Both the position numbers and the translations under genes were made by a program. The notes beneath the pieces were generated by a model that saw nothing but the letters and a program-made list of their open reading frames with translations, did not search any database and had not been told where the DNA came from. From positions 1 to 64,000 of the forward strand of contig NZ_JAHXDN010000003.1 in the NCBI RefSeq assembly GCF_019375555.1: DNA of 64,000 nt, written 5' to 3'. Positions 18,777 through 35,810 of the stretch are shown here, in pieces (position 1 is the first letter of the stretch; each line of letters starts with the position of its first letter). The DNA is from Roseobacter insulae. GTDB taxonomy: Bacteria; Pseudomonadota; Alphaproteobacteria; Rhodobacterales; Rhodobacteraceae.

Positions 18777-18793
18777 TGTTCGCATAGCGCACG
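18777..18793. promoter_or_regulatory. Candidate IclR operator A (sugar-type importer operon / iclR)
   Basis: TGTTCGCATAGCGCACG: half-sites TGTKCGC and GCGMAC face each other across 3 bases. It lies 25 bases before the binding-protein start and in the divergent gap with the IclR gene. The same 17-bp pattern recurs at 23563, 25285, 32378 and 34850, each time in an intergenic region. The IclR protein encoded next to it is the natural candidate to bind. Confidence 0.7.
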
Positions 18794-18969
18794 TTTGTTC
18801 AATATAACACTCGAAGTGTTGAGTCGCGCAAGAAGCTTTTTTACGCACCGGGCTTTTGCAATAGTGGTTGTATGTGCGTAATAGCATTCGCGTCCGCTGT
18901 CGGGTGCGGTATTTGAGTGTGCGCCCAGGCGGGTGTCGATGGAACCAACATTAACGCAGGATCAGATTT

Positions 18970-19818
18970 TTGACCAAAAGCACGCCGGAAAAACCGATTG
19001 CGCCAGCGGGCCTTATGACCGCCGAGCCTGACCGCAGTGATGACTCTGATGCAAGCGGAATGAACCCGCGCGACTATGTCAGCTCGCTCGGAAGGGGGCT
19101 TGAGGTGTTGCGCGCTTTCAACCGCACCGGGCGCAAGATGACCCTGAGCCAGGTTGCCGCAGAGACCGGCCACACCCGCGCGGGCGCGCGCCGTATTTTG
19201 CTGACGCTTGTGCATGAGGGCTATGCGGTTGCTGACGGCAAACTCTTTGACCTGACGCCCCTGGTGCTGGAACTGGGTCATTCCGTCCTGTCGTCGAAAG
19301 GCGTTTGGGAGGTGGCAAAACCGTTCATCGATCACCTGTCTGAAGACGTGCGCGAAAGCGTCTCCGCCGCCGTTCTGGACAATTTTGACGTGGTTTATGT
19401 GTCGGGTGCGCAATACCACCGCGTGATCAGCGTCGGGATTTCTGTTGGCTCTCGCTTTCCGGCGCATTGTACCGCGAACGGACGCGTCCTTCTTGCGGCG
19501 CAGCCCAAGGAAAAGTGGCCCGCGATGCTGCGCGACATCGAACTGACGAAACTGACAGAGAAAACAGTGGTCGACCGGGCGGCCTTCAAGAAGGTGCTGG
19601 AACAGGTGCGTGATCAGGGGTGGTCGATGGTGGATCAGGAACTCGAGATTGGGCTGATGTCCATCTCTGCGCCCGTCAGGACAAAATCGGGCTCGCTTGT
19701 CGGTGCGATCAATGTGGGCGTGCCAACGCTGCGCATGACACCCCGGGAAATGGTCGCAGAGGTCCTGCCAAAGCTCCAGACGACCGTCTCCAATATCTCG
19801 AAGGCTTTGATCGGTTAG
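18970..19818 (+). CDS. IclR-family transcriptional regulator, PcaR/PobR-like
   Basis: A 282-residue IclR protein if started at the TTG at 18970 (AGGAT upstream); an ATG at 19060 (MNPRDYVSSLGRGLEV) is an equally plausible start. The winged helix is at about 57-80 (MTLSQVAAETGHTRAGARRI) and the effector domain runs from about 110, with FPAHCTANGRVLLA and DQELEIGLMSISAPV typical of the family. IclR proteins sense small metabolites and repress or activate catabolic genes. It is divergent from the sugar-type importer operon and convergent with the flavoprotein operon, in the middle of the repeated 17-bp operator-like sites, so it is probably the local master regulator. Confidence 0.9.
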   Translation: MTKSTPEKPIAPAGLMTAEPDRSDDSDASGMNPRDYVSSLGRGLEVLRAFNRTGRKMTLSQVAAETGHTRAGARRILLTLVHEGYAVADGKLFDLTPLVLELGHSVLSSKGVWEVAKPFIDHLSEDVRESVSAAVLDNFDVVYVSGAQYHRVISVGISVGSRFPAHCTANGRVLLAAQPKEKWPAMLRDIELTKLTEKTVVDRAAFKKVLEQVRDQGWSMVDQELEIGLMSISAPVRTKSGSLVGAINVGVPTLRMTPREMVAEVLPKLQTTVSNISKALIG

Positions 19819-19821
19819 GCG

Positions 19822-20946
19822 TCAGACGGCGAACCTGGCAGGGGTGTAGCGGTCGATGACACCATGATCCGGCTGGCCCAGAAGACATGACGCTGCCAGT
19901 TTGGCGACGAGCGGTCCCAGCGTATAGCCCGCGTCCCCCGGAACGGCCATGACCACCCGGTCGTTCGCGGGTAAAGGGCCGATCACCGACGCGCCGTCGA
20001 TTGTTGTGTTCATGCCTGCCCATGTCCGGATGATGCGCATATGACCGATGGCTGGCACCAGCTTTGCGGCAAGCGAGACGTTTCCCAAAAGGGATGACGG
20101 TGCGACTGCAGGGACGCGGAGCGCGCCGCGGTGTTGGGCCGACCACCCGCCGCCAATCACGATCTGGCCGGTCTTGAATTGCTTGAGCGTGATGGAACGT
20201 TCGGCATGCTGGACAAGGTGTTCGATCCGTGCCGAAGAGGCCTCGGTGATATTCATGTGCAAAGGTTCCGCGACGGAGGGAATTGCCACGCCGAGACCCT
20301 GCACAAGCGCGCCCGCCCCCCATGCGGCCGCGACGACGACACGGTCGGCCGGGTAGGTGTCGCGATCACCGATTGCGACGATGCGGTTGCCGGCGGACAG
20401 GGTGCGGATGTGGTCTTGTTCAAAGCGCACGCCAAGCGCATCTGCGACGGCGCGCAGGCGCGTGTTGGCCGCCAAAGGGTTGACCTTGCCTTCATTCCGG
20501 CACAGCTCCGCGCCAATGATCTGCGGCCCCAGCCAGGGCACAATGCGTTCCAATGCAGGCCTGTCGAGGATTTCGACCGACACGCCCTTTTTGGCTTCGC
20601 GGGCGGCCTTTTTCTCCAGAAATGCAAGTTGGGTTGCGTCCTCGGCCAGCATCAGACCCCCTTTGCGAACCAGTTCGAAGGGGCCGTATGCCGCATCAAG
20701 TCGCCTCCATTCTTCGACGGCCTGACAGTAAAGCGGCAACGAGGCTTCGATGTTCGGAACCTGATCGGGATAAAGCCGCATGAAACGGCTTTGCATCTGC
20801 ACATGCAGGCTGCCGGCATTTGCGGTCGAGCCTGCATTGATGCCCGCATCGACAACCGTAATACGCGCACCGGCCTGCGCCAGTTCGATGGCGGTCACCT
20901 GGCCGACAATGCCGCCCCCGATGACAAGGATGTCAGTCGGGGTCAT
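19822..20946 (-). CDS. FAD-dependent oxidoreductase, D-amino-acid-oxidase type
   Basis: A 374-residue flavoprotein with an N-terminal dinucleotide-binding motif ILVIGGGIVGQVTAIE (6-21), NAGSLHVQM near residue 50, and GGGWSA in the substrate half. This is the DAO/glycine-oxidase/opine-oxidase B-subunit pattern. The ATG at 20946 overlaps the upstream 2Fe-2S/FAD gene by 14 bases. Together they resemble the subunits of D-hydroxyproline dehydrogenase or octopine/nopaline oxidase. Paralogous to the flavoprotein at 28210. Substrate is probably a secondary amine or imino acid. Confidence 0.88.
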   Translation of the reverse strand: MTPTDILVIGGGIVGQVTAIELAQAGARITVVDAGINAGSTANAGSLHVQMQSRFMRLYPDQVPNIEASLPLYCQAVEEWRRLDAAYGPFELVRKGGLMLAEDATQLAFLEKKAAREAKKGVSVEILDRPALERIVPWLGPQIIGAELCRNEGKVNPLAANTRLRAVADALGVRFEQDHIRTLSAGNRIVAIGDRDTYPADRVVVAAAWGAGALVQGLGVAIPSVAEPLHMNITEASSARIEHLVQHAERSITLKQFKTGQIVIGGGWSAQHRGALRVPAVAPSSLLGNVSLAAKLVPAIGHMRIIRTWAGMNTTIDGASVIGPLPANDRVVMAVPGDAGYTLGPLVAKLAASCLLGQPDHGVIDRYTPARFAV

Positions 20947-22600
20947 CCAGCGCCTCCTGCGCAGCAAGGATGGACGCGATGGACACCGGCTTGATCGGGA
21001 CACGCGGTGCGAAATTGCTGAAATCGTCCACCGGTTTGCCCGTGGTTTGCGCCACCAGACGGGTCGCGACCGGCCCGCAATAACGCCCCTGACACCGCCC
21101 CATGCCAACACGTGTCGCGCGTTTGAGGGTGCCGACATGGCCCGGGCTGGTCTCAAGCCCATCCAGGATATCGCCCAGTGTAATCTCTTCGCAGCGGCAG
21201 ACGATGGTGTCCCGCGCCGCCTTGTCCGGGGTCCTGGGGCTGATGTCATGCATCTTCCAGAGGCTGGCCTGAAAACGGCGGTGCCGGGCGAGGCGGCGCT
21301 GGTGAGAGAACAAATCATGGGCATCACCAAAGCCTGCGCGGGCGGCTGCAACGCGTCCCGCGATCAAACCTTCCACCCGCGCCGCAGGCGCCCCCCCAAG
21401 GCCCGCGCAATCGCCGACGGCAAAGATATTCCGCACGCTGGTTTCCATCTTAGTATCCCGGTCGCACCTCAGGTGCCCGAATGCCGGATCATAGGTCATC
21501 TTTGCCCCGAGGAGCCGCAGGATTTCGTTCTGTGGTTCAAACCCGGAGTTTATGCAGAGGGCGTCGACGGTTTCGGCGATTTCCTCATCCGAAGCAGTCT
21601 TGAACGTGGCGCGCAGGCTTTCGCCGTCTGCGTCAACACGGCTCAGCGTGGTTTGGTGGCGCAGCGAAATGCCGCGCCGATGCAGATCCCGCATCATGCC
21701 CAAGCCCTTGATGACAAGGCCGGGGTCAGCCATGAGCGCCGCAAACGCGTGCCACGGAACCCGCCAGGGTGCGCGCGCGGCTTCGGCGACCATGGCCACA
21801 TCCGCGCCACCCTCTGCCAGCTCCAGCGCGACCTGCGCATTCAGCGGGCCCGACCCGCATATGGCAATGCGTTTGCCCGGCAGCGTAAGGTAGCTGCGCC
21901 ACAGGGTCTGTGCTGCGCCGGTCGTCATCACCCCCGGCAGTGTCCACCCCGGCACCATGCAGGGCCGCTCGTATGCGCCTGTCGCAATGATCGCGGTCTT
22001 TGGCCGGACGATCAGCGCCGCACCTTCGCTGTCAGCCAGAAAAAGCGGGCCGTCGAAGGCCCCCCAAATCTCGACAGAACCCAAAACATCCGCGCCGCTC
22101 TCTTGCGCGCGCTTCAGAAGTGCAGCGCCTTCACGCTGTTGGGCATCGAGCGGAGGGTGGCTGGCGGATTGCTTGTAATACTGCCCGCCTGCGACCTTGC
22201 GTTCGTCCAGAACGATGACGCTGGCGCCTGCTTGGCGTGCCGCGATGGCTGCCGACAGGCCACCCGCGCCACCGCCGATGATCGCGACATCGGGTTCCAG
22301 AATGCGCGCGGGATCGGGTTTTTGCGCAGCTGGCATGTCCTCCAGAACCGGGAATGCGATTTGCGGAACTATCTTCAGACCCTTCGCCGCAGCTGTCATG
22401 CACGCGCGTCGGTTCGGGACGCCGTCAATTGTGACGAGGCACTCCTGACAGACACCCATGCCGCAGAACATGCCCCGGGGGTCGCCCTTTGCGGTGCGGC
22501 GCAGCGCAAGCTGTCCCGCGTCAGTCAAAGCCGCTGCAACGGATTGGCCATCGCGAAATTCAATGGGGTTGCCGTCAAAGTGAAAGCTGTCCCGGCTCAT
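20933..22600 (-). CDS. Fused 2Fe-2S / FAD-NAD(P) oxidoreductase / BFD-like protein
   Basis: A 555-residue three-part protein. Residues 1-80 are a 2Fe-2S ferredoxin-like domain with Cys46, 51, 54 and 67. From 104 follows a pyridine-nucleotide-disulfide-type flavoprotein (VAIIGGGAGGLSAAIA) with a second Rossmann motif (RIAICGSGPLNAQVALE). The C-terminus has a bacterioferritin-associated-ferredoxin-like 2Fe-2S site (VCRCEE, then MGRCQGRYCG). In LhpBEF-type D-hydroxyproline dehydrogenases and in opine oxidases the first two parts are often separate subunits, so this is a fused A-subunit. The ATG at 22600 follows GAGGAG and overlaps the upstream gene (ATGA). Confidence 0.9.
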   Translation of the reverse strand: MSRDSFHFDGNPIEFRDGQSVAAALTDAGQLALRRTAKGDPRGMFCGMGVCQECLVTIDGVPNRRACMTAAAKGLKIVPQIAFPVLEDMPAAQKPDPARILEPDVAIIGGGAGGLSAAIAARQAGASVIVLDERKVAGGQYYKQSASHPPLDAQQREGAALLKRAQESGADVLGSVEIWGAFDGPLFLADSEGAALIVRPKTAIIATGAYERPCMVPGWTLPGVMTTGAAQTLWRSYLTLPGKRIAICGSGPLNAQVALELAEGGADVAMVAEAARAPWRVPWHAFAALMADPGLVIKGLGMMRDLHRRGISLRHQTTLSRVDADGESLRATFKTASDEEIAETVDALCINSGFEPQNEILRLLGAKMTYDPAFGHLRCDRDTKMETSVRNIFAVGDCAGLGGAPAARVEGLIAGRVAAARAGFGDAHDLFSHQRRLARHRRFQASLWKMHDISPRTPDKAARDTIVCRCEEITLGDILDGLETSPGHVGTLKRATRVGMGRCQGRYCGPVATRLVAQTTGKPVDDFSNFAPRVPIKPVSIASILAAQEALDDPD

Positions 22601-23541
22601 AGATCTCCTCGCAGCAACCGATCGCGAAGTCCAACCAGCCTGGCAACTGCCCTGGATCGCCACGCGGCGCGCTCCGGGATGGACTGACCTGCGCGCGCTG
22701 CGTCACGGGCGGCTGCGACCCGCGCGACGAGTGGTTCTGACCAGTTCACCGTTTCGCCACGTTGCTCGCCCATTCGTTCATAGGCCGGGCCAAGCCGCGC
22801 GGCATGTGCCGCAATACCGCCCGGTGTGTTGAGTTCTGCCGTTTCAAAAGGCCCGGACAAGGCCCATCTGGGGCCTAGGCCGAGCCGCATGACCCTGTCG
22901 ATGTCATCCGGCTCCGCAATGCCGTCATCAACCAGACGGTAGGCTTCGCGCAGGACAGCGCCTTGCAAGCGGTTCAGCACGAAGCCTTCGATCTCGCGGG
23001 CAAGGACAACCGGCTCGAAACCGGCATCGGCAAAGTGAGTTGCGGCGCGCTGGATGGCTTCGGGGGAGGTTCCCGGCGCCGGGCTGAGCTCGATCAGGCG
23101 CAACACTGCGGGCGGATTGACCGGATGGGCGACCATGCACCGGCTTTGCTGATCGGGGTCGGGCACGATCTGCGACATCGGGATCGCGGAAGAGGCCGTG
23201 ACAAGCAGTGTGGTCGGGGGCGTCTCCGTCAACAGGCGGGCAAAAATCTCTTGTTTGATGTCGAGGCTTTCAGGCCCGCATTCGATCACAAGCGTGGCTT
23301 GCTCCAGCGCCCCTTCATCAGACCTGACAATGTCGATGGCCCCGCCGCGCCCTTTATCGAGGTCCGCCAGAGCGATCCCATCCTGTTGTTTTCTGAGGCC
23401 GTCTGCTGCTGCATCCCGGCGCGGCAGATCGGGCTCCACCAGCGTCACCTGCCAGCCGTTATCGGCCAGAACGGCGGCGAAGGAGACGCCGATAAAGCCC
23501 GCGCCCAAGATGACGACCCGGTTATATGTCTCGCTGGTCAA
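22597..23541 (-). CDS. 3-hydroxyacyl-CoA-dehydrogenase-family protein (lambda-crystallin / gulonate dehydrogenase type)
   Basis: A 314-residue NAD-dependent oxidoreductase. The N-terminal Rossmann domain starts VVILGAGFIGVSFAAVLADN; then VIECGPESLDIKQEIF, ASSAIPMSQI and VAHPVNPP, the usual HCDH active-site strip, and a helical C-terminal domain. It lacks the hydratase part of fatty-acid enzymes, so it is closer to small HCDH-fold dehydrogenases acting on hydroxy acids (gulonate, carnitine, hydroxybutyrate). I chose the TTG at 23541, which has AGAAAGG upstream; the ATG at 23562 abuts operator F. First gene of the operon with the two flavoproteins. Confidence 0.85.
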   Translation of the reverse strand: MTSETYNRVVILGAGFIGVSFAAVLADNGWQVTLVEPDLPRRDAAADGLRKQQDGIALADLDKGRGGAIDIVRSDEGALEQATLVIECGPESLDIKQEIFARLLTETPPTTLLVTASSAIPMSQIVPDPDQQSRCMVAHPVNPPAVLRLIELSPAPGTSPEAIQRAATHFADAGFEPVVLAREIEGFVLNRLQGAVLREAYRLVDDGIAEPDDIDRVMRLGLGPRWALSGPFETAELNTPGGIAAHAARLGPAYERMGEQRGETVNWSEPLVARVAAARDAARAGQSIPERAAWRSRAVARLVGLRDRLLRGDL

Positions 23542-23562
23542 ACTGAACCTTTCTCTTGCCAT

Positions 23563-23579
23563 GGTGCGCATGGCGAACA
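23563..23579. promoter_or_regulatory. Candidate IclR operator F (HCDH-flavoprotein operon / SDR)
   Basis: GGTGCGCATGGCGAACA, read on the plus strand, is the reverse form of the shared 17-bp site: half-sites GTGCGC and GCGAAC across 3 bases. It lies in the 89-base gap between the divergent HCDH-like gene (start 23541) and SDR gene (start 23631), so it could control both directions. Confidence 0.65.
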
Positions 23580-23630
23580 AAAGTACGAATACACGCCAGA
23601 CGCCGCACCCCGCAAGAAGGAACACAGATC

Positions 23631-24389
23631 ATGGCATTCTCACAAGACCTCGCAGGCCGACATGCGGTTGTGACAGGGGGCGCGTCGGGGTTGGGGCGGG
23701 CGATTTCCACAAGGCTGGCGGCAGCCGGGGCCAAGGTTACGATTGTCGATCTGGAAGCGGCCCGGGACCAGGTGCCGCAGGATTTTGGTTTTTTCGGCTG
23801 CGATCTTGGGATGCCTGAGGCCAAGACCCGGTTGGGGGCACTCGCCGACGGCCCTGATGCCGTTGATATCCTCGTTGCCAATGCCGGTGTTGTGCCGCCG
23901 TGGCGGGGCCTGCAAGACGTCGACGGCGAAGAGTGGCAGCGTGTGATGGCGATCAACACCTGGGGGGTTGCCGTAAGTATCGGGGCCTTCGCACGGGTGA
24001 TGGCGCAATCTGAATGCGCATCGATCGTCGTTATGGCGTCGATCAACGGCTTTCGGGCGCATGCAAAACAGGTTCTCTACACGGCGTCGAAACATGCAGC
24101 CATCGGGATCACCCGTGCGGCAGCCCTCGATCTGGGGCCTAGCCGCATCCGCGTCAACGCCCTGGCACCTGGCCCGATCGCAACAGAGGCCCTGCTGGGG
24201 CGCATCAAAAACCGTCACGAGGCGGGAGGCCCAAGCCCGGAGGAGGTTGTTCAGGCCATGGCCGGGGAAACCGCGCTCGGGCGCACGGCCACGCCCGAGG
24301 AGGTGGCCAATGCGGCTCATTTTCTCGCGTCCGACGCTTCAGGGGGCATGACCGGTGCCATCCTGCCGGTCGAAGCGGGGCTGGTTTAG
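23631..24389 (+). CDS. Short-chain dehydrogenase/reductase
   Basis: A 252-residue classical SDR with TGGASGLG (15-22), ANAG (83-86), Ser137, and YTASK giving Tyr150 and Lys154. The catalytic set is complete. The ATG at 23631 follows AGAAGGA. It is divergent from the HCDH-like operon and converges on the isomerase gene with a 4-base overlap of stops. An NAD(P)-dependent hydroxy-acid or sugar-acid dehydrogenase is likely; the substrate is not determined. Confidence 0.9.
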   Translation: MAFSQDLAGRHAVVTGGASGLGRAISTRLAAAGAKVTIVDLEAARDQVPQDFGFFGCDLGMPEAKTRLGALADGPDAVDILVANAGVVPPWRGLQDVDGEEWQRVMAINTWGVAVSIGAFARVMAQSECASIVVMASINGFRAHAKQVLYTASKHAAIGITRAAALDLGPSRIRVNALAPGPIATEALLGRIKNRHEAGGPSPEEVVQAMAGETALGRTATPEEVANAAHFLASDASGGMTGAILPVEAGLV

Positions 24390-25225
24390 GGTAAAGGATT
24401 CCAGCCTGCGTCCGCCAGAATCTGGTGGCTGGCCCTGATGTCACTGTCGGGATCCGCGCCGGGCTGGAGCGCGTCGGTGATGATTTCGAGAACCGTCGCG
24501 CCCGTGTAGCCAATATCCTGAAGTGCCTCGAAAGACGGGCCGGGATCTACAACACCTGTGCCGAGACGCGCATGTACGAATTCCTTGTAGCCAGTGTCCG
24601 AAATGTGCACATTTTTGAGCTTGTCGCCCATCATTCTGATCGCGGCGGCGGGGTCTTCCTGGATAAAGGCACTGTTGCAGATGTCGAAATTGATGCCGAT
24701 CTCCGGGCCGATTAGGTTGGCGGTGTCGACCATATCCTGTGCGGTGGGCAGGTAGGTAAACGGCACGTTTTCCAACAGCAGTTCGACCCCAGTGCCCTGC
24801 GCATGCTCAACCAGCGCCTTCATGCCCTCGACAAACCAGTCCAGCATCCACTGGTGCGGCGGGTTGATCAGGCTATTGATCGGCCCCGGGATGGCGACGA
24901 CGTAGGGGCAGGACAATTCGGCGGCAAAATCGATGGCTTCACGGTAGCGGTCCAGCGTGTATTCCCGCATTAGCTTGTCAACACCGTTGGGGTTGTTGTC
25001 CAGCAACGGATAACAGAAAGAAGAGATGCGCAGGCCTTCGCCGTCCAACCAGGCCTTGTAGTCCTGTCGCCGCCCGGATGACAATTCACGCGGCCAGCAG
25101 TGCGGCGGAAAGATCATCAACTCGAACAAATCATAGCCAAGGCTGCGAAGATGCTTCATCGCCCCCAGACCATCGTGAGAGTAGAGAAACGGAAACGTGC
25201 TGGCTGCGACTTCAAGCTTGGTCAT
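24386..25225 (-). CDS. Xylose-isomerase-like TIM-barrel protein (sugar phosphate isomerase/epimerase family)
   Basis: A 279-residue protein of the AP_endonuc_2/xylose-isomerase-like fold. Visible landmarks are LGYDLFELMIFPPH, LLENVPFTYLPTAQD (metal Glu), GINFDICNSAF (metal Asp), NVHISDTGYKEF (His) and ATVLEIITDA (metal Glu). The ligands needed for a divalent metal are present. Family members isomerise or epimerise sugars, inosose, hydroxypyruvate or dehydroshikimate. It is divergent from the Old Yellow Enzyme gene with operator C between them. Confidence 0.85.
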   Translation of the reverse strand: MTKLEVAASTFPFLYSHDGLGAMKHLRSLGYDLFELMIFPPHCWPRELSSGRRQDYKAWLDGEGLRISSFCYPLLDNNPNGVDKLMREYTLDRYREAIDFAAELSCPYVVAIPGPINSLINPPHQWMLDWFVEGMKALVEHAQGTGVELLLENVPFTYLPTAQDMVDTANLIGPEIGINFDICNSAFIQEDPAAAIRMMGDKLKNVHISDTGYKEFVHARLGTGVVDPGPSFEALQDIGYTGATVLEIITDALQPGADPDSDIRASHQILADAGWNPLP

Positions 25226-25284
25226 GTGATGGGGGTCCCTTTCCACTTGTCAGACAAGGCCGACATGTTCAATCTACGCACAAA

Positions 25285-25301
25285 TGTTTCTATACCGCAC
25301 G
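25285..25301. promoter_or_regulatory. Candidate IclR operator C (isomerase / OYE)
   Basis: TGTTTCTATACCGCACG is the weakest of the five copies: its right half keeps CGCAC. A further GCACAA half-site at 25278 lies exactly 19 bases before the GCACGA at 25297, as at sites B and D. It sits between divergent genes, 34 bases before the OYE start and 60 before the isomerase start. Confidence 0.55.
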
Positions 25302-25335
25302 AATTCGTGGGGCAATCCGAAATGAAGGAGGCCAG

Positions 25336-26436
25336 ATGGCCAGCACGCTCTTTTCGCCGATCACCCTGCGGGGTCTGACGATCCCCAACAGGATCACGGT
25401 CGCTCCCATGTGCCAGTATTCAGCCGTGAACGGCGTTCCACAGGACTGGCACATGGTGCATCTGGGGCAGTTCGCCCTCTCCGGTTCGGGCCTGATCTTT
25501 ACCGAGGCAACCGGTGTCGAGCCTGACGGGCGGATTACGCTTGGCTGCACCGGACTCTATGATGATGCCACGGAAAGCGCCTTTAAGCGTATCGTATCAT
25601 TCATGAAATCCGCAGGTGAGATGGCCGTCGGCATCCAGCTGGGCCACGCAGGCAGGAAAGGCAGTACAATCGAGCCATGGCTTGGCGGCGGCATGATCGA
25701 GGGGGAGGGGGCGTGGCACCCTCAGGCGCCGTCAGCGGTGCCCTACCTTCCCGGATGGCCCGCTCCTGACCCGATGGATGCCGCGGATATGGACCGTATC
25801 AAGCAGGCATTCGTACAGGCCACGCGTCGGGCGGATCGCGCCGGTTTCGACATCGTTCAGGTGCATGTCGCACACGGATATCTGCTGCATCAGTTCCTGT
25901 CTCCGCTCACCAATATGCGGACCGACGGATATGGCGGCGGCCTTGAGGGGCGTATGCGCTATCCACTTGAGGTTTTCAAAGCGGTGCGCGATGCGTTTCC
26001 AAAGGAAAAGCCTGTGATGGTGCGCCTCTCCGCCACGGACTGGATTGAAGGCGGATGGGATATCGACCAATCGATCGCTTTCTGCCGCGCGCTCAAGGAT
26101 ATGGGCTGCGACATGGTGGATGTTTCCTCAGGTGGCCTGGATCAGGCGCAGCAGATCGTGGCCGGACCGGGATATCAGGTCTATTTCGCCGCCCGCATTC
26201 GGGCCGAGAGCGGGATGGCGACGATGGCGGTGGGGCAGATCACGGACCCTGTTCAGGCCGAAACGATCCTGCGCACGGGGCAGGCGGACATGGTCGCGCT
26301 TGCCCGTGGTATGTTATGGGATCCACGGTGGACGTGGAAAGCAGCCGTTGCACTGGACGAAGAGATTGCCCTTCCGGCGCCTTACGCGCGGTGCAATCCA
26401 AAGCTGCGCGCAACGCCGTTTGTATCGAGGAAATAA
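25336..26436 (+). CDS. Old Yellow Enzyme family NADH:flavin oxidoreductase (YqjM-like)
   Basis: A 366-residue FMN-dependent TIM barrel. PMCQYSA (25-31) has the Cys and Tyr typical of the thermophilic-like/YqjM class, then QLGHAGRKGS, and VAHGYLLHQFLSP, which holds the substrate His pair region and the OYE signature. The ATG has a full AAGGAGG site. The enzyme reduces activated C=C bonds of enones or demethylates cyclic amines in some branches. It shares a transcript with the SDR that starts 3 bases after its stop. Confidence 0.9.
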   Translation: MASTLFSPITLRGLTIPNRITVAPMCQYSAVNGVPQDWHMVHLGQFALSGSGLIFTEATGVEPDGRITLGCTGLYDDATESAFKRIVSFMKSAGEMAVGIQLGHAGRKGSTIEPWLGGGMIEGEGAWHPQAPSAVPYLPGWPAPDPMDAADMDRIKQAFVQATRRADRAGFDIVQVHVAHGYLLHQFLSPLTNMRTDGYGGGLEGRMRYPLEVFKAVRDAFPKEKPVMVRLSATDWIEGGWDIDQSIAFCRALKDMGCDMVDVSSGGLDQAQQIVAGPGYQVYFAARIRAESGMATMAVGQITDPVQAETILRTGQADMVALARGMLWDPRWTWKAAVALDEEIALPAPYARCNPKLRATPFVSRK

Positions 26437-26439
26437 AGC

Positions 26440-27213
26440 ATGGGCACACTCTCGGGAAAGACCGTGATCGTAACGGGGGCATCGAAAGGGATTGGTGCCG
26501 CAACCGCCGCCGCGATGATCGACGCAGGCGCGACTGTCCTTGCCCACTATGGCGGCGACCGTGCAGGTGTCGAGACGGCGACCGCCGGTGCCAAGCCGGG
26601 TCAGGTGACGCTCTTGCAGGCCGATTTTGCGGATATGGACGCGGTGGACGCGTTCTGGGACGAGGCGGTTGTGGCGGCCGGCGGTCAGATTGACGTGCTG
26701 GTCAACAATGCCGGAATCATGCGGCAATCCGGCGGTATCGAAGACTCGATTGAGGCGTGGGATGAGGCGTGGACGCGCTCCATGGCCGTCAATGTGCATG
26801 CGCCCGCGCGTTTACTGCGTCACGCGGTGCGCGATTGGCTGAGCGCGGAGGCAGGCGGTTCCGTGATCGCCATTGGCAGCTGGGTGACGACGCGCGGCAC
26901 GGCCAACCCGGGTGCAATCTCCTATGCCGCGTCCAAAGCGGCCATCGCGGCGGCGACCAAAACCGTGGCGCGGAACTATGCCGCGCACGGTATTCTGGCG
27001 TACGTCATCGCGCCGGGCGTGGTCCGCACCCAGATGTCTGTCGACAGTGCCGCCAAAACAGGCGGGGAGGATGCGGTGACCGCAACCCTGCCGATGGGAG
27101 AATGGGTGCCGCCATCGGACATCGCGGAAATGGCCGTCTTTCTTGCCGAGGGCCGGGCGCGGCACCTCACGGGTGCCACGATCGACCTCAATGGCGCGGC
27201 CTATATCCGATGA
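26440..27213 (+). CDS. Short-chain dehydrogenase/reductase
   Basis: A 257-residue classical SDR: TGASKGIG (12-19), NNAG (89-92), Ser147, Tyr162 and Lys166 (SYAASKAA) are all present. It follows the OYE gene by 3 bases, so they are co-expressed, and converges on the second DapA-family gene with a 16-base gap. Confidence 0.9.
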   Translation: MGTLSGKTVIVTGASKGIGAATAAAMIDAGATVLAHYGGDRAGVETATAGAKPGQVTLLQADFADMDAVDAFWDEAVVAAGGQIDVLVNNAGIMRQSGGIEDSIEAWDEAWTRSMAVNVHAPARLLRHAVRDWLSAEAGGSVIAIGSWVTTRGTANPGAISYAASKAAIAAATKTVARNYAAHGILAYVIAPGVVRTQMSVDSAAKTGGEDAVTATLPMGEWVPPSDIAEMAVFLAEGRARHLTGATIDLNGAAYIR

Positions 27214-27229
27214 GCCGGCGCAGATGAGC

Positions 27230-28180: not shown

Positions 28181-28209
28181 CCTTTGGTCCTTTTCGAGAG
28201 AGGCGCGGC

Positions 28210-29346
28210 ATGACCCGCGTGGATGTCGTGGTGATTGGGGGGGGTATCGTCGGCCTCATGACCGCATGGCATCTGGCGCGCGAAGGCGCGCGTGTGGCCT
28301 TGCTGGAGGCAGGCGATCTGGGCGCGCAGGCGTCTGGGGCGAACGCCGGGTCGTTGCACTTGCAGATCCAGTATCCCGAATTCGCAAAATACGGTGAAGG
28401 CTGGGCGCGCGCCTATGCCCCCACATTGCGGTTTCTGGAGGCATCGATTGGGATGTGGCAGGATCTTGGGCAGGAGGTGGGCGAAGACCTCGACGTCAGG
28501 CTGGGCGGCGGCATCGTCGTCGCGCGTGACCCGGCCCAGATGCGGTTGATCGAAGCGAAGGCCCGGATCGAGGCCAGCGTCGGTGTCGAGACGCAGATTC
28601 TGGATCGCGATGCTTTGCTGGCACTTGCGCCCTATCTTTCCGACAAGGCGATCGGAGGCGGGTATTGCGCGGGCGAGGGCAAGGCCAATCCGCTGCGTGC
28701 CACGCCGGCCATTGCCCGCACAGCCGAGGCCGAAGGTGCGACGGTACACTGCAATGCGCCCGTGACAGGGCTTGCTGGCCGGGCCGGGGCATTTGTCGTG
28801 ACGACCCCGCAGGGCAGGTTGCAGGCGGATAAGGTCGTCAACACGGCGGGTGCCAAAGCGGCCAAAATTGCCGCGATGCTGGGGATGCAGATCGACATTG
28901 GCGGCTTTCCCCTGCAGGTCACGGTGACCGAGCCGATTGCCCCGCTGATCCCGCACCTTGTCTATTCGGCGGCTGGAAAACTGTCTCTGAAACAGGCCGC
29001 GAATGGGGGGTGCATCATTGGCGGTGGCTGGTCTGCGGATGTGCGCAGCCACGGTGGGCTTGCAACCAACCCGGTCAACTTTGCCGGTAACATGGCGATG
29101 GCGGCAGGCGTCGTGCCGCGCCTGGCGCAGGCCCGCACGATCCGAAGCTGGACGGCCTGGGTCAATGGCACGCCTGACTGGCGCCCGATCATTGGCGAAG
29201 CGCCAGACATCCCTGGCTTTTACCTCGCGCTCTTTCCATGGGTTGGCTTCACCGCCGGTCCGATGACCGCACGCGTGATTGCCGATCTGGTGATGGGCCG
29301 TGCCCCCGCCATCGACCTCACCGGGATTTCCGTTCTGGCGGACTGA
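28210..29346 (+). CDS. FAD-dependent oxidoreductase, D-amino-acid-oxidase type (second copy)
   Basis: A 378-residue flavoprotein: VVVIGGGIVGLMTAWHLA (4-21), SGANAGSLHLQIQ, EGKANPLRATPA and GGGWSADV match the pattern of the flavoprotein at 19822, so the two are paralogues. No 2Fe-2S partner gene is adjacent; it may share the fused partner at 20933 or act as an oxidase. Its upstream gap to the divergent DapA-family gene is very short and holds no copy of the 17-bp site. Confidence 0.88.
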   Translation: MTRVDVVVIGGGIVGLMTAWHLAREGARVALLEAGDLGAQASGANAGSLHLQIQYPEFAKYGEGWARAYAPTLRFLEASIGMWQDLGQEVGEDLDVRLGGGIVVARDPAQMRLIEAKARIEASVGVETQILDRDALLALAPYLSDKAIGGGYCAGEGKANPLRATPAIARTAEAEGATVHCNAPVTGLAGRAGAFVVTTPQGRLQADKVVNTAGAKAAKIAAMLGMQIDIGGFPLQVTVTEPIAPLIPHLVYSAAGKLSLKQAANGGCIIGGGWSADVRSHGGLATNPVNFAGNMAMAAGVVPRLAQARTIRSWTAWVNGTPDWRPIIGEAPDIPGFYLALFPWVGFTAGPMTARVIADLVMGRAPAIDLTGISVLAD

Positions 29347-29364
29347 CGTCACCCGGCCCATCGC

Positions 29365-30924
29365 TCAGGCCACATCTTCTGCCTTGGAGGCACCGCGTAT
29401 TTTGCGCTGGTACGCGCGCCATGTCATCGCCCATCTGGCAGGGTCTTCGAATGCATCGCCCCTGACCTGCGCGATGGCCTGATTGTGGGGCGCCGTCTTG
29501 ACCATATCGGGATCTGTACGCGCCTCTTCGGCGATTTGCGCAATCACCCCGATCCAGGTGTCGATATCCTCCTTGGACCACAACTCGCCAGCCTCCGGTG
29601 TGAAGGGCTCGGCAACAATCCACGGCTCGTGGCTCATCCAATAGGGGTCGATGCCATAATCGGCCATGCGGTTGGCAAAATCGACAGTGCTGACCCCGGT
29701 TTCTTCGGTCAGGGGGCCGAGTGACCAGCGTGTCATTTCCATGCGGTGAATGTCGAGGGACGGGTTGGATATCTCCAGCCCCGGTATCTCGCCCAGTTTC
29801 TTGTCCATGTAGTTATTCGCGACAACCGAGATGTCCGAGGCCAGCTCGATGCCGTCCGCCCCCATGGCGCGCGACCACGCATAGGCTTTTACGACCTGCG
29901 GCACGTTCCCCCAGAATTCGCGCACCTTGCCCGCGGATTTCGGGCGGTCCTCGTCGAGGATGTAGCGATCCCCCTCCTTCACCACGACCGGGCAGGGCAG
30001 GTAGGGGGCCAGTGCGTCGGTACAGCCGTAAGCGCCCACAGCCGGACCGCCACCCGCCTTGGGCGCGCCGAAGGTTTTGTGCAGCATGAACATGCAGGCA
30101 TCAAAGCCCAACTCGCGCGCCGACAGCTTGCCCATCACACCGTTGAAGTTGGCATGATCGTAAAAACACAGCGCGCCAGCCTCTTTGGCGACCTTGACCC
30201 ATTCCTTGATCTCGGGATTGTAGATGCCCATGTCGTCGGGGTTGTTGATCATGATCAGCGCGGTCTTTTCGCTGACTGCGGCCTTGAGCGCGTCAAGCGA
30301 GGGATAGCCGTTTTCCTCCAGTGGCAGGTTCACGACCTTGAAGCCCGCCGCTGCCGCCGTGGCCGGATTGCACGGATGTGCCTGAACCGATGTCACCATC
30401 TCCGTGCGCTGACCCAGCATGCCGCGATCCTGCCAATAGGCCCGCGCGACCGCTGTCATGGTGTAGGCCGCATCCGCCCCGCCGCCCGCCTGGAATATGA
30501 ACTGATCCATGCCGGACAGGCTGCGCAGGATACTGTCAAAGTCGTGAATGATCTCAAGCACACCCTGCAGGGTATCGGGATGCTGATAGGGGTGCACTTC
30601 GGCCAGTTCGGGGCGCAGCGTCGCGTATTCGGCGGTCTTCGAGTTGTACTTCATCGTGCAGGTGCCAAAGAGGCTGATGCCCATCATCCCCAGCGTCATC
30701 TGGCTGAGGTGGAGGTAATGCCTCTGGGCTTCGAACTCGGTGATCTCGGGCAATTCCGGGCGATCCTTGCGCGCCATGCCGCCGGGGATCAGATCCGTGC
30801 CGACAGCCTCGTTCACTTCGTCTTCTGGTGTGGGGAAGAGTTGCCCGCGTGCGCCGGGACGACCCATCTCCATCACAACAGGTTCGTTCCACTTGGCGGC
30901 GCGGAATTCGGGAATGCGGGTCAT
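29365..30924 (-). CDS. Glycine-dehydrogenase-like protein, C-terminal P subunit (GcvPB-type)
   Basis: A 519-residue PLP protein. The PLP lysine lies in FMLHKTFGAPKAGGGPAVGA, and GTCTMKYN and KVREFWGNVPQVVKAYAW match the GcvPB frame. GcvPB pairs with GcvPA to decarboxylate glycine, passing aminomethyl to lipoylated GcvH. The ATG at 30924 overlaps the GcvPA-type stop (ATGA). No gcvH or gcvT is present in the window, and it lies in a catabolic cluster, so the substrate may not be glycine. It converges on the flavoprotein at 28210 with an 18-base gap. Confidence 0.82.
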   Translation of the reverse strand: MTRIPEFRAAKWNEPVVMEMGRPGARGQLFPTPEDEVNEAVGTDLIPGGMARKDRPELPEITEFEAQRHYLHLSQMTLGMMGISLFGTCTMKYNSKTAEYATLRPELAEVHPYQHPDTLQGVLEIIHDFDSILRSLSGMDQFIFQAGGGADAAYTMTAVARAYWQDRGMLGQRTEMVTSVQAHPCNPATAAAAGFKVVNLPLEENGYPSLDALKAAVSEKTALIMINNPDDMGIYNPEIKEWVKVAKEAGALCFYDHANFNGVMGKLSARELGFDACMFMLHKTFGAPKAGGGPAVGAYGCTDALAPYLPCPVVVKEGDRYILDEDRPKSAGKVREFWGNVPQVVKAYAWSRAMGADGIELASDISVVANNYMDKKLGEIPGLEISNPSLDIHRMEMTRWSLGPLTEETGVSTVDFANRMADYGIDPYWMSHEPWIVAEPFTPEAGELWSKEDIDTWIGVIAQIAEEARTDPDMVKTAPHNQAIAQVRGDAFEDPARWAMTWRAYQRKIRGASKAEDVA

Positions 30925-32327
30925 GACAAAACCTCCTTGAGCGTCTCGGCAAGCGTTCGGATGTCGGCAGCCGTGTGCACTTCGGTCACACAGTAAAGCG
31001 CGGACTGACCAAGCGCGTTGTCCTCGCCCGAGATGTCCTTGCCGCCAAAAATCCCCTGCGCGCGCAGCAGATCGTTGATCTCGGCCACCGTCTTGCCGGT
31101 GCCGTCGAAATTCACCACGAACTCCTTGAATGTCGTATCCGGCCAGACAATCTTTATGCCGGGAACCTCGGAGAGGCATTTTGCGGCGTAACGCGCCCGG
31201 GAAACGATCAGGTTGCCAAGTTCCCGAAACCCCTCGGGACCCAGAAGGCTCATGTAAACAGCGCCGGCGATCGCCCAGAGATAGGTGGAATTGCCTGTCC
31301 AGTCCTTGCCGTGTTCGCGTGAGCCATAGGAGTTCTGATGCGGGCAGGCCAATCCAAAGCCCACCTGACCCGGTTCCAGCGTCTCGACAATGGAAACAAG
31401 AAACCCGTTATATTCCAGAACGTATTTTTCCTCGTCGCGCGATGCGATGAAACCGCCGACGCCGCCGCCGCACTGCATATGCACGCCCAGGGGCTGTACT
31501 GGTCCGGTGACGATATCCGCACCGTAGTCGCCCGGCGCGGTCATCACGCCCAGCGATACCGGATCGACCCCGACAATGGTTTCCGCCCCTGCGGCGCGTG
31601 TCAGATGTGCGATTTCCGCAGCTTCGGTCTCGATGGTGCCCAGATAGGCGGGGTTCTCGAAGTAGACTGCGGCAACATCGCTGCCGAGCTTGGCGTGCAG
31701 GTCATTCAGATCCATACGCCCGGTTGTCGGGTCTGCGGCCACCATGACCACGTCGATATGGCTCTCCATTGCCGAGGGCTGGCAATATGTCTTGAGCACC
31801 GACAGCCGCTCCGGGTCGGACAGTTGCGAGACGATGACCTTGGAGCGGCCCGTGATGCGCTGCGCCATGCGGACCGCATGCCCAATGGCACAGCCCCACG
31901 AGTAGACGGGCAGTTGCACGACATCGAGATTCAGCAACGCGCCAAGCTGCGACGAAAACTCGAACCAGGCCTGATTGCGCCCGTGATCGGACTGGTAACT
32001 GCCCCAGACGTTCGTGGCGAATTCTGTTCGGCCGACGATCTCGTCGACGATGGCGGGCACGTGATGCTGCCAGACACCGGCCCCCAAAAAGCTGAGATTG
32101 GTTTCGCAATCCGCGTTCTTCTTCAGCTTGCTGACCAGATCCCGCTTCAGCTCGATTTCGGAAGACAGTGTTGGCGGCAGATCCAGCGGGGTTGTGCGGA
32201 AATGATCCTGTGGGATTTGCTCGAAAACCTCTGCCGCGGAGGTGGCACCGATCTCGTCCAGCATCGCCTGCATCGCGCCGGGGGCGGAATTTGCCATCCA
32301 CGGATGTGCGCGTGTTGTGTCGGTCAT
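30921..32327 (-). CDS. Glycine-dehydrogenase-like protein, N-terminal P subunit (GcvPA-type), divergent
   Basis: A 468-residue PLP-fold protein. It keeps the GcvPA opening (AMLDEIGATSAAEVFEQIP, then LSFLGAGVWQHHVPAIVDEI). The usual Y-T-P-Y-Q-x-E-x-S-Q-G segment is replaced by VWGSYQSDHGRNQAW and the usual A-S-x-Y-D-G by LPVYSWGCAIG. These segments line the substrate pocket in known P-proteins, as I recall them, so altered substrate is likely. Start: ATG at 32327 after GAGGAGA; the ATG at 32330 is also possible. Operator B lies 51 bases upstream. Confidence 0.8.
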   Translation of the reverse strand: MTDTTRAHPWMANSAPGAMQAMLDEIGATSAAEVFEQIPQDHFRTTPLDLPPTLSSEIELKRDLVSKLKKNADCETNLSFLGAGVWQHHVPAIVDEIVGRTEFATNVWGSYQSDHGRNQAWFEFSSQLGALLNLDVVQLPVYSWGCAIGHAVRMAQRITGRSKVIVSQLSDPERLSVLKTYCQPSAMESHIDVVMVAADPTTGRMDLNDLHAKLGSDVAAVYFENPAYLGTIETEAAEIAHLTRAAGAETIVGVDPVSLGVMTAPGDYGADIVTGPVQPLGVHMQCGGGVGGFIASRDEEKYVLEYNGFLVSIVETLEPGQVGFGLACPHQNSYGSREHGKDWTGNSTYLWAIAGAVYMSLLGPEGFRELGNLIVSRARYAAKCLSEVPGIKIVWPDTTFKEFVVNFDGTGKTVAEINDLLRAQGIFGGKDISGEDNALGQSALYCVTEVHTAADIRTLAETLKEVLS

Positions 32328-32377
32328 CATGGGTCTCCTCGGTGTCGGCGAACGGTCAGCCGTAGCTGGTGCACAAA

Positions 32378-32394
32378 TGTTCGCATATCGCACA
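32378..32394. promoter_or_regulatory. Candidate IclR operator B (GcvPA/GcvPB-type operon)
   Basis: TGTTCGCATATCGCACA differs from site A at two positions. A GCACAA at 32371 repeats the GCACAA at 32390 with 19-base spacing, giving three half-sites. It lies in the 74-base gap between the NAD-kinase-like gene and the GcvPA-type gene. Confidence 0.7.
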
Positions 32395-32401
32395 ACTCTA
32401 A

Positions 32402-33511
32402 TCAACCAGAAGCAATGCGCATCATCATCTCGCGGTTGGCCCCTGTTGCGACGCGGACGAAACCCGTCAGTTCTGCATCCAGATCGGGGTCTCCAGTGTC
32501 GATCAGCAAGCGCGGATGCGCCAGCGAGGTCAGCTTATCCTCGGTTGCCAGAATAATCAGGCCATCGCGCCCCGCTTTCGCAATGAGCGCCGGCCCGATC
32601 TGCTGATTGCCACGGCCCAGCAGAAAGCCCTGTTGCCCGGTCACACCCAGAACGACACGCACGTCCCGACCCTCGGCCAGGGCGCACAATGCTGCGTCGT
32701 CTGCGTCCTGCGCCACGCGTTTGCGGTTCAGCAACGCGTCCACACCCAAAGGTGTCGCAGTGTGACCTGCTGCGCGCATGACGGACCCTGCGCTTGTACC
32801 CGGGCCGATGATGTAAAGCGTGCGGTCCTCCATGCCGTCTACGATGCCTCGCGCAGCGCTCGACAAAGCGCTGGCCGCGTCCTGTCGCGGTCCGCCCTTG
32901 GCCGCCTGCATCAGCGTACAAGAGACAGGAACGCGGGCGTAGCCGTAAAGCCGTGGCGCGAGAATGCCGCGCCGCAACGCCTCCTCGTCGATGTCCATCA
33001 CCTCGGCGTCGTCAGCCCAGGTTATCCGGTCTGGCGAGGCGGTCAGATCGGCCATCATTGCGCCCGCTGACTGTGGTGAGACCGCAAAGACACCTGAATG
33101 CATCTTGACGCCGCATGGAATCCCAAGAAGAGCCGCACCCTCTGCGACACTCGCCACATCGCGCGCCGTGCCATCGCCACCGGCAAAGACGATGACGTCA
33201 AGCGCGCCCATCGCACGCACTGCTGCCTTGGTATCGCGGGCGGTACCTGTGAGGTTTGAGCCCGGCGTGATCACCGTGTCGAGGTCGAGACCGCGCGCCC
33301 AGTCTTCGCCCAGGGATCCGGCGGCAAGAATGATTTCGGCCCCCGGCACCCGGTCTGCCAATCGGCTCAGGGCAAGTCGCGCCCGCGCACCCGCTTTGGC
33401 CTGCGCGCCGCGTCGCAACGCTTCGGTCACCGTGCCCGGCCCGTCTGTGCCCTTGAGGCCGACAGCCCCGCCAAGCCCCGCAAATGGATTGACAACCAGT
33501 CCGATACGCAT
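32402..33511 (-). CDS. ATP-NAD kinase family protein (AcoX type)
   Basis: A 369-residue protein of the NAD kinase/diacylglycerol kinase fold. The N-terminus MRIGLVVNPFAGLGGAVGLKG and VIVFAGGDGTARDVAS (GGDGT loop) are diagnostic; ATEDKLTSLAHPRLLIDTGD closes the protein. It is longer than housekeeping NAD kinases and of the AcoX branch found in catabolic clusters. It lies directly upstream of the GcvPA/GcvPB-type operon on the same strand but is separated from it by operator B. Its ribosome site is weak. Confidence 0.85.
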   Translation of the reverse strand: MRIGLVVNPFAGLGGAVGLKGTDGPGTVTEALRRGAQAKAGARARLALSRLADRVPGAEIILAAGSLGEDWARGLDLDTVITPGSNLTGTARDTKAAVRAMGALDVIVFAGGDGTARDVASVAEGAALLGIPCGVKMHSGVFAVSPQSAGAMMADLTASPDRITWADDAEVMDIDEEALRRGILAPRLYGYARVPVSCTLMQAAKGGPRQDAASALSSAARGIVDGMEDRTLYIIGPGTSAGSVMRAAGHTATPLGVDALLNRKRVAQDADDAALCALAEGRDVRVVLGVTGQQGFLLGRGNQQIGPALIAKAGRDGLIILATEDKLTSLAHPRLLIDTGDPDLDAELTGFVRVATGANREMMMRIASG

Positions 33512-33587
33512 CGCTGTATTTGGCCCGTTAGCAGTTGCGTTTGCAACGGCAATTGAAAACAGGTGCCGAAAACCGCAAGGAGAAGAA

Positions 33588-34371
33588 ATGCGTGTGGGAC
33601 ACCCCGACCACACCACACTTGGCCGCAAGGTGCCAATCCGTCGCCTGATTAGGGTCTGTGGCACATGGCCGGTCAGGCGAGGGACGGCAAACCCTGCGAT
33701 CTGGATCATGCCGCCGAAGCGCTGCTGGAATAGGCCCGCTCCGGTTTCGACGGATTCGACATGGCCGATCACAAGGGCAGCTCAGAAATCGTGGCGGGCA
33801 TGGTGTGCAGGGCGATGACCGAGGCGGGCGAGGTGCCGCCCACGATCCTGACGAGGTAACGTCCGCCCCCCGGACAAATGACGGCCGATGTGGTGCGCAA
33901 AGGTGTCGAGACGGCGCTGGAACGCCTGCAGATTGACTGCGTTGACGTGATGCAATTCCGTTGGTGGCAGTACCAGTCGCAGGACTACCTCGATGTGCTT
34001 GAACACCCGATGCGGTTGCGCAAAGAGGGGCTGATCGGTGAGATCGGGCCGGCGAATTTCGACGCCTCCCATCTGCGTATGCTGATCAAAGACAGGATCG
34101 AAATAGCTTCAAACCCGTTTTGTTTCTTCCTGCGCGACCGACGCCGCGCGCGACAATCATTGGCGCGCGTTTGGGCGAAGCCGAACACCGTGTCGACAGC
34201 CTGAACGCGCTTTCGCTGCAGTTCGACGCGGAAGATCGCGCCGCGATCAGGGCCGCGGTAAAGACGCTCGGCCGCGTTCCCGGCGATTGCGGCGACGAAT
34301 ACCACAAGCCACCGTGCCTGACCGCGTCGGGCGATCTGAGCGATCATCTGCATGCCTTGCCGCCGGTTTTT
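33588..34371 (+). pseudogene. Aldo/keto reductase, broken
   Basis: An intact AAGGAG site and ATG (33588) open MRVGHPDHTTLGRKVPI, followed by a frameshift, then GKPCDLDHAAEALLE, a stop (TAG) and RSGFDGFDMADHKGSSEIV. Another stop (TAA) precedes MTADVVRKGVETALERL and the barrel strand VDVMQFRWWQYQ. About 100 residues of the middle are then missing: the sequence jumps from FCFFLRDRR to the C-terminal ATIIGARLGEAEHRVD part. Frameshift, two stops and a deletion make it dead. It is divergent from the NAD-kinase-like gene and in frame with the RidA-like region that follows. Confidence 0.75.
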
Positions 34372-34785
34372 GGTGTCATTTCCGCGCCCGCACGCCCGAA
34401 GAAATCCCGCGCGCTGAGCGGATCTATCTATGAAGAAAAAGCGGGATTTGCGCGCGCACACCGCACCGGGACCTCTATCCGGGTCAGCGGCACGACGGCC
34501 ACCGATCCCCATGGCAACCCCCTGTGCGCGGAAGACGTAAAAGGGCAGGCCGCGTATACCTTGGACAAGATACCGGCCGCGGTGGGATCGCTTTGGCGCG
34601 CGACCGAAGATGTGGTGCGCACCCGCATCTACCTGCGCGGTGCCGGGAACTGGCAGGCCGTGTCGCGTGTGCATGCCCGCTGTTTCAGGGGGGGTCTTCC
34701 GGCCAATACGCTGATCGGCGGCGTTCAGGTGATCGGGCCCTATGCCGTCGAAATCGAGGCCGAAGCCGACGTCGATCCAAGTTAA
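34372..34785 (+). CDS. RidA (YjgF/YER057c/UK114)-family domain, possibly remnant of an AKR-RidA fusion
   Basis: About 137 residues from a possible GTG at 34372, with GTSIRVSGTTATDPHGNPL, DVVRTRIYLRGAGNW and the RidA-typical NTLIGGVQVI. RidA proteins hydrolyse reactive enamine/imine intermediates made by PLP enzymes and amine oxidases, which would suit this cluster. There is no ribosome site before the GTG, and the frame continues uninterrupted from the aldo/keto reductase C-terminus. It may therefore be the tail of a fused gene and no longer expressed. Confidence 0.6.
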   Translation, partial: GVISAPARPKKSRALSGSIYEEKAGFARAHRTGTSIRVSGTTATDPHGNPLCAEDVKGQAAYTLDKIPAAVGSLWRATEDVVRTRIYLRGAGNWQAVSRVHARCFRGGLPANTLIGGVQVIGPYAVEIEAEADVDPS

Positions 34786-34849
34786 TCGCGCCAAGACTCA
34801 TCAGCTATTGACACACGGACAAAGTTTGCCGACGCTGAATGCGCACAAA

Positions 34850-34866
34850 AGTTCGTTTTGCGCACA
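34850..34866. promoter_or_regulatory. Candidate IclR operator D (amino-acid importer / AcnX operon)
   Basis: AGTTCGTTTTGCGCACA matches the shared site in both half-sites. A GCACAA at 34843 repeats the one at 34862 with 19-base spacing, as at sites B and C. A TTGACA (34808-34813) lies upstream but no good -10 follows at 17 bases, which would fit a promoter needing an activator. The first gene starts 69 bases downstream. Confidence 0.65.
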
Positions 34867-35745: not shown

Positions 35746-35756
35746 TTGAGTAAAGC

Positions 35757-35795
35757 GATACGCCCCGGTTTTCTGACAGAAGTCCGGGGCGTATC
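35757..35795 (+). terminator. Strong intercistronic hairpin after the binding-protein gene
   Basis: GATACGCCCCGG (35757-35768) pairs perfectly over 12 bp with CCGGGGCGTATC (35784-35795) around a 15-base loop. It fills the gap between the binding protein (ends 35745) and the first permease (35811). With no T-run, it is more likely an mRNA stabiliser or partial attenuator than a full terminator, because the permease has no visible promoter of its own. Confidence 0.7.
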
Positions 35796-35810
35796 CACAC
35801 ATAGAACCAT

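What the first reader, a model, noticed from the sequence alone, without database searches (positions are those of the whole stretch)
18777..34866. A repeated 17-bp semi-palindrome marks a probable IclR regulon spanning over 30 kb
Five intergenic sites fit the pattern TGTTCGCATAGCGCACA with variations: 18777-18793, 23563-23579 (inverted), 25285-25301, 32378-32394 and 34850-34866. All lie 22-69 bases before gene starts, often between divergent genes. Three (B, C, D) have an added GCACAA-type half-site in direct orientation exactly 19 bases away. That three-half-site design is what is described for PcaU/PobR-type IclR regulators, and an IclR gene lies next to site A. The sites link the sugar-type importer operon, flavoprotein operon, SDR, isomerase, OYE, GcvP-like pair and the amino-acid importer/AcnX operon into one regulon.
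Basis: partly seen in the sequence, partly recalled or inferred. Interest (0 to 1): 0.82.

Follow-up and report, generated by a model that had tools for sequence, protein, structure and literature searches.

The report
Three-box operators of one IclR regulon
Five conserved DNA sites, each an inverted repeat plus a third half-repeat exactly 19 bases away, lie before eight gene units of one bacterial gene cluster and are predicted to be where a neighbouring IclR-type regulator binds and would switch a likely catabolic pathway of unknown substrate on and off together.

Summary
The five sites are at the stated coordinates. At one mismatch the 17-bp pattern gives five window hits against 0.62 expected: A, B, D, E and a dyad at 25266 that overlaps C and fits better than the listed C. 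The third half-site was under-reported: all five sites have it, not three. With each site left out of its own matrix, 67 of 70 orthologous gaps in relatives exceed the 99% null; 71 of 74 palindromes have a third half at 19 bp. In 198 same-family genomes the three-box pattern is in 10 of 10 that encode this IclR (own genome included) and in 13 of 188 that do not, about the control rate. In three diverged, rearranged clusters sites stand before most moved operons, but not before gcvPA. The regulator passes the PcaR/PcaU/PobR cut-off, and three-box IclR sites are already described for 32 orthologous groups (PMC8222616). So this is a new member of a known kind, over an uncharacterised, probably catabolic cluster. 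Binding, effector, sign of regulation and substrate are untested; repression with autorepression is my inference.

The parts
18777..18803 (.). Operator A: dyad 18777-18793 plus third half 18796-18803, between the importer operon (-) and iclR (+)
   Evidence: orthologous gaps 16 of 17; TATAAT-like hexamer at +26 on the + strand in 14 of 18 loci
23563..23589 (.). Operator B: dyad 23563-23579 plus a weak third half 23582-23589, between the flavoprotein operon (-) and the SDR gene (+)
   Evidence: orthologous gaps 15 of 15
25266..25301 (.). Operator C: two dyads 19 bp apart, 25266-25282 and 25285-25301 (four half-sites), between the epimerase-like gene (-) and OYE (+)
   Evidence: orthologous gaps 13 of 14
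32368..32394 (.). Operator D: third half 32368-32375 plus dyad 32378-32394, before gcvPA (-)
   Evidence: orthologous gaps 15 of 16; not seen in the diverged clusters L146 and L149
34840..34866 (.). Operator E: third half 34840-34847 plus dyad 34850-34866, before the amino-acid importer operon (+)
   Evidence: orthologous gaps 8 of 8 readable
18970..19818 (+). IclR-family regulator, the proposed binder of A-E
   Evidence: TIGR02431 301.2 bits, cut-off 284.75; solved relatives
9814..18752 (-). Operon before A: sugar-type ABC importer (4 genes), DapA-like, two SDRs, class III aminotransferase, polysaccharide-deacetylase-like
   Evidence: frames and families; start; order kept in relatives
19822..23541 (-). 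Operon before B: 3-hydroxyacyl-CoA-dehydrogenase-like, SoxA/HcnB-like and ThiO/SoxB-like flavoproteins
23631..24389 (+). SDR dehydrogenase before B
24386..25246 (-). Sugar-phosphate epimerase/isomerase-like gene before C
   Evidence: start GTG 25246 or ATG 25225
25336..27213 (+). Old-yellow-enzyme-like reductase and SDR before C
29365..32330 (-). gcvPA-gcvPB pair before D
   Evidence: NF001696 404.5 (cut-off 364) and NF003346 486.2 (cut-off 441); start
34936..41296 (+). Operon before E: amino-acid ABC importer, GST-like, ornithine-cyclodeaminase-like, aconitase X (cis-3-hydroxy-L-proline dehydratase)

Best explanation
The five sites are predicted operators of the IclR-type regulator encoded at 18970-19818, each made of an inverted repeat plus a third half-site exactly 19 bp away, and they would place eight transcription units of a likely catabolic cluster under one regulator. 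Shown here: position, anatomy, conservation in orthologous loci, and co-occurrence of the three-box pattern with this regulator. Inferred: two IclR dimers would hold the alternating half-sites. Without inducer they would cover promoter or leader DNA 21-69 bases before the start codons and repress, the regulator's own gene included at site A. An intermediate of the pathway, unknown and probably amine-containing, would release them or change their hold. Activation at some of the promoters, as known for PcaU and PobR (recalled), is not excluded.
For: Five hits against 0.62 expected. Leave-one-out matrices find the site in 67 of 70 orthologous gaps (A 16/17, B 15/15, C 13/14, D 15/16, E 8/8), 0 of 200 permuted matrices reaching the mean at any site. 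Third half at 19 bp in 71 of 74 palindromes; other spacings of 15-24 bp give 0-18. Of 6 three-box hits with at most two mismatches in the genome, 4 are here. Pattern in 10 of 10 genomes with this IclR and 13 of 188 without; reversed control in 13 of 198 (Fisher p 6e-11, post hoc and with related genomes). The gcvPA ortholog is in 9 of the 10 and in 0 of 188. TIGR02431 cut-off passed. TRAGARRILLTLVHEGY is identical in 17 of 18 orthologs. For repression: distance to starts and the TATAAT-like hexamer overlapping the third half of A in 14 of 18 loci.
Against: No binding, expression or start-site data. Listed site C is weak (rank 76 with the symmetrised matrix). L080 misses A and C and L126 misses D. 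The promoter scan finds nothing at the sites, and no hexamer is conserved at B, D or E. No D-type site in the diverged clusters L146 and L149. Three cluster genes have no site here. The motif type is not private to this IclR: two of the 13 hits in genomes without it lie near other IclR genes (G153 40%, G129 30% identity).
Confidence: 0.82

Rival explanations
1. The sites bind this IclR, but it acts mainly as an activator, as known for PcaU and PobR (recalled): with inducer it would recruit RNA polymerase.
For: The regulator falls in the PcaR/PcaU/PobR model and the third box is the layout of PcaU and PobR (PMC8222616, passages). No sigma-70-like promoter is found at the sites, as weak activator-dependent promoters could look.
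Against: Sites lie 21-69 bases before starts, and at A the third half overlaps a conserved -10-like hexamer, which fits blocking better. Start sites are unknown.
Confidence: 0.3
2. The sites are real operators of a different regulator and the IclR gene is only a neighbour.
For: Other IclR genes elsewhere have similar motifs nearby (G153, G129). The own genome has four more IclR-like matches.
Against: Three-box pattern in 10 of 10 genomes with this IclR and at the control rate without it. The four other matches in the own genome have only 24-27% identity. Conserved recognition segment. Site A lies before iclR itself.
Confidence: 0.06
3. Chance repeats or coding constraint: the sites are not functional.
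For: The 17-bp dyad alone is common at two mismatches (442 hits, control 349).
Against: the gaps tested lie between genes; no tandem array in 18000-35500.
Confidence: 0.02

Closest known systems
PcaU / PobR of Acinetobacter baylyi (IclR family, TIGR02431)
   Same: IclR protein above the TIGR02431 cut-off; GTNCG-N5-6-CGNAC dyad plus an external direct half-site, required for PcaU binding according to PMC8222616, which cites Popp et al. 2002 (passages).
   Different: No gene of the beta-ketoadipate pathway was recognised among the units before A-E (families); sites stand before many units, one of them with four half-sites; sign of control unknown.
Three-box operators of IclR regulators (Suvorova and Gelfand 2021, PMC8222616)
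   Same: Boxes of alternating direction, one pair of group 1 (here the TGT-11-ACA subgroup) and the other of group 2; predicted there for 32 orthologous groups; tandem dyads 18-22 nt apart as at C (abstract and Results read).
   Different: Whether this orthologous group is among their 181 could not be checked, because supplements were not available; GcvP, COG1003, COG1902 and COG0329 do not occur in the main text.
BhcR (glyoxylate-sensing IclR regulator)
   Same: IclR family; 132.3 bits.
   Different: Far below the BhcR cut-off of 350.

Membership tests
PcaR/PcaU/PobR-type IclR regulators (TIGR02431) | Sequence above the curated model cut-off | tested here: met
   301.2 bits, cut-off 284.75
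PcaR/PcaU/PobR-type IclR regulators (TIGR02431) | Operator of dyad plus external direct half-site | tested here: met
   5 of 5 window sites, 71 of 74 palindromes in all
PcaR/PcaU/PobR-type IclR regulators (TIGR02431) | Controls beta-ketoadipate or 4-hydroxybenzoate genes (function of the named members) | tested here: not met
   None recognised among the units before A-E; hence not filed as a PcaU or PobR, only as the same subfamily
PcaR/PcaU/PobR-type IclR regulators (TIGR02431) | Aromatic-acid effector | not testable with these tools
   Needs ligand binding assays
Three-box IclR operators (PMC8222616) | Three boxes of alternating direction, fixed spacing, conserved in orthologous loci | tested here: met
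Three-box IclR operators (PMC8222616) | Bound by the regulator | not testable with these tools
   Needs EMSA, footprinting or DAP-seq
BhcR | Sequence above the curated model cut-off | tested here: not met
   132.3 bits, cut-off 350

The most novel reading that the evidence does not exclude
A ladder operator code: one IclR reads half-sites of alternating direction in two dimer registers. The side of the third box is fixed per promoter and kept in orthologs (right at A in 18 of 18 and at B in 14 of 16, left at D in 16 of 16 and at E in 9 of 9, both at the four-box C), so the same protein would repress some units and activate others when its ligand shifts it by one register, and so time the steps of an undescribed catabolic route that uses a split glycine-decarboxylase-like enzyme, perhaps on a substrate other than glycine.
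Probability: 0.12. Interest if true: 0.75.

Novelty: new member of a known kind. Interest (0 to 1): 0.45.

Why it matters
It gives a testable operator set (five sites, one regulator, eight units) for an uncharacterised cluster found mainly in Rhodobacteraceae, and so a way to its substrate: what releases this IclR from its operators should be the substrate or an intermediate. Three-box sites whose third box keeps its side per promoter also make the proposed alternative dimer registers of IclR regulators testable in one system.

Tried and rejected
The 17-bp dyad at two mismatches was useless genome-wide, as was the three-box pattern at three, so tighter limits were used. The sigma-70 scan found no promoter at the sites (2 in 18600-35200 against 4.0 in shuffles). 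TATAAT-like hexamers: 14 of 18 at one offset at A; at C at most 6 of 15; at B, D and E at most 2 loci at any offset. Covering open frames did not separate stray hits from real sites. Substrate: PDB and family matches give classes only. A route for mycosporine-like amino acids was considered; in the listing no title or abstract start bears on it, and nothing here tests it; not claimed. cis-3-Hydroxy-L-proline is the predicted substrate of AcnX, but among the 16 stretches read AcnX is seen in this operon only in L111, so it is taken as an add-on. Literature: searches returned 0 papers; one search listed 2 and 10, PMC8222616 first in both; one search listed 10 with PMC8222616 second. Of papers only PMC8222616 was opened (outline, passages, whole Results). 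No homologous-protein search, structure prediction or fold search was made.
Full report
Observation. The five sequences are at the stated places. One-mismatch matches to TGTTCGNNNNNCGCACA number five in the window against 0.62 expected, 0 of 100 shuffles reaching five. The five-site matrix separates its sites (20.2-25.2) from the rest (12.9 and below), partly by construction. Left out one by one with the asymmetric matrix, A, B, D and E are each recovered as the best non-training hit and C is the fifth-best (rank 9); with the symmetrised matrix C is only rank 76.

Third half-site. Other spacings from 15 to 24 bp give 0 to 18, the 18 at 17 bp. As two sides are tried per palindrome, about 7 would be expected by chance. 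The three misses are B in L067 and L069 and C in L066.

Specificity in the genome. The dyad alone is not specific (442 hits at two mismatches, reversed control 349). The three-box pattern at up to three mismatches has 28 hits against 36 for the control, so three mismatches is noise; of the 6 hits with at most two, 4 are E, A, D and C. Of the other two I can say only that long open frames cover them, which is also true of the four real sites. B is not found by this pattern.

Conservation. 18 loci encoding a relative of the IclR (71-89% identity) came from named records, mostly labelled Rhodobacteraceae or genera I place there from recall, with Microvirga, Hoeflea, a Hyphomicrobiales MAG and a MAG labelled Gammaproteobacteria. 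The cluster order is largely kept where the contigs reach. For D and E, 17 loci were submitted and 16 genomes searched (L068 not held; L070 not submitted), and one stretch of each was read. With the matrix built without the tested site, 67 of 70 gaps exceed the 99% quantile of column-permuted matrices: A 16/17, B 15/15, C 13/14, D 15/16, E 8/8; no permutation of 200 reaches the observed mean at any site. The misses are L080 at A and C and L126 at D. Gaps that could not be formed: A 1 of 18, B 3 of 18, C 4 of 18, D 0 of 16, E 8 of 16 (no aaSBP ortholog of 45% identity found there). For L066 the A gap was the 300 bases before iclR. Relatives share descent, so these are not independent counts.

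Link to the regulator. In 198 genomes of the same family, drawn evenly and including the own genome, the IclR (E up to 1e-90) occurs in 10. The three-box pattern with at most one mismatch occurs in those 10 of 10 (9 of 9 without the own genome, from whose sites the pattern was made) and in 13 of the 188 others; the reversed pattern occurs in 13 of 198, so the 13 are about the chance rate. The gcvPA ortholog (E up to 1e-150) is in 9 of the 10 and in none of the 188; the tenth, G134, is 84% complete. The survey overlaps the ortholog set: G156, G151 and G056 have their gcvPA match at the same contig position as G003, G007 and G013. Two of the 13, G153 and G129, have hits near other IclR genes of 40% and 30% identity: the motif type is shared by the family. 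Three more distant clusters were read (IclR 54-62% identity: L146/L147, L148, L149/L150). Genes are rearranged there, and sites stand between iclR and the importer operon, before the flavoprotein operon and, where read, beside the epimerase, with an added site between DapA2 and the oxidase in L149. No site above the limit stands before gcvPA in L146 or L149; in L148 the stretch ends inside the NAD-kinase-like gene. The DNA-binding region is 54-62 of 62 identical in the 18 close orthologs, and TRAGARRILLTLVHEGY is the same in 17 of them, L069 having one change.

Regulator and genes. The protein passes TIGR02431 (301.2, cut-off 284.75) and matches solved chains named Pca regulon regulator (178.3 bits) and p-hydroxybenzoate hydroxylase activator (75.1 bits). 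Units beside the sites: importer operon, iclR, flavoprotein operon, SDR, epimerase-like gene, OYE-SDR, gcvPA-gcvPB, amino-acid importer to AcnX, seven structural units plus iclR. Operon limits are inferred from gene order and short gaps. DapA-like 27230-28180, oxidase 28210-29346 and NAD-kinase-like 32402-33511 have no site of their own in the window.

Mechanism (inferred). The dyads lie 21-69 bases before the starts that I chose, in the zone where PMC8222616 finds most IclR sites (Results read). At A a TATAAT-like hexamer on the iclR strand overlaps the end of the third half in 14 of 18 loci. I therefore favour repression with autorepression, relieved by an inducer. PcaU and PobR are activators (recalled), and the promoter scan found no promoter at the sites, so activation stays as a rival. 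The substrate is not identified. The gene classes (amine- and amino-acid-oxidising flavoproteins, aminotransferase, SDRs, an OYE-like reductase, DapA-like lyases, two importers) suggest an amine-containing, partly hydroxylated compound; this is inference only. Both Gcv proteins pass the NCBIfam cut-offs for glycine dehydrogenase subunits, which speaks against a substrate other than glycine.

Known or new. Three-box IclR sites are predicted for 32 orthologous groups, and tandem dyads 18-22 nt apart for 94 (PMC8222616; abstract, Results and passages read). This is a new member of that kind. I did not find this regulon in print in searches, of which I saw listings only and which cover open-licence PMC text only; the supplementary tables of PMC8222616 could not be consulted.

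Noticed in passing
window 29365-32330: A split gcvPA-gcvPB pair in the cluster. Both pass the glycine dehydrogenase subunit cut-offs; the HKTF lysine motif is present (its meaning recalled). 12 of 16 relatives also have a separate, distantly related match in a long frame of 940-1203 aa, so this may be a second, specialised copy.
   Followed up: partly
L118-L122, about 3.4, 9-10.5 and 12-13 kb in the window's orientation: Further motif hits next to the NAD-kinase-like gene and beyond it; L119, the one annotated, has there a LysR regulator, M20 and M24 peptidase-like genes and a peptide-type ABC importer. The regulon may be larger in these relatives.
   Followed up: partly
L145 7263-12924: Three motif hits around a different IclR gene (40% identity) with NMT1-like, DctM-like, rhodanese, acyl-CoA dehydrogenase and Rieske oxygenase genes: a likely separate IclR regulon with a similar motif.
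   Followed up: partly
window 38661-41296: Ornithine-cyclodeaminase-like gene and cis-3-hydroxy-L-proline dehydratase (NF051439, 861.6 bits, cut-off 700) at the end of the operon before E; among the 16 stretches read, seen only in L111.
   Followed up: partly
window 33512-34839: About 1.3 kb between the NAD-kinase-like gene and site E with no convincing gene: the 269-aa frame 33985-34794 has no NCBIfam or Pfam match.
   Followed up: no
L066 1-729: A second IclR match (72% identity) at the contig end of the same locus.
   Followed up: no
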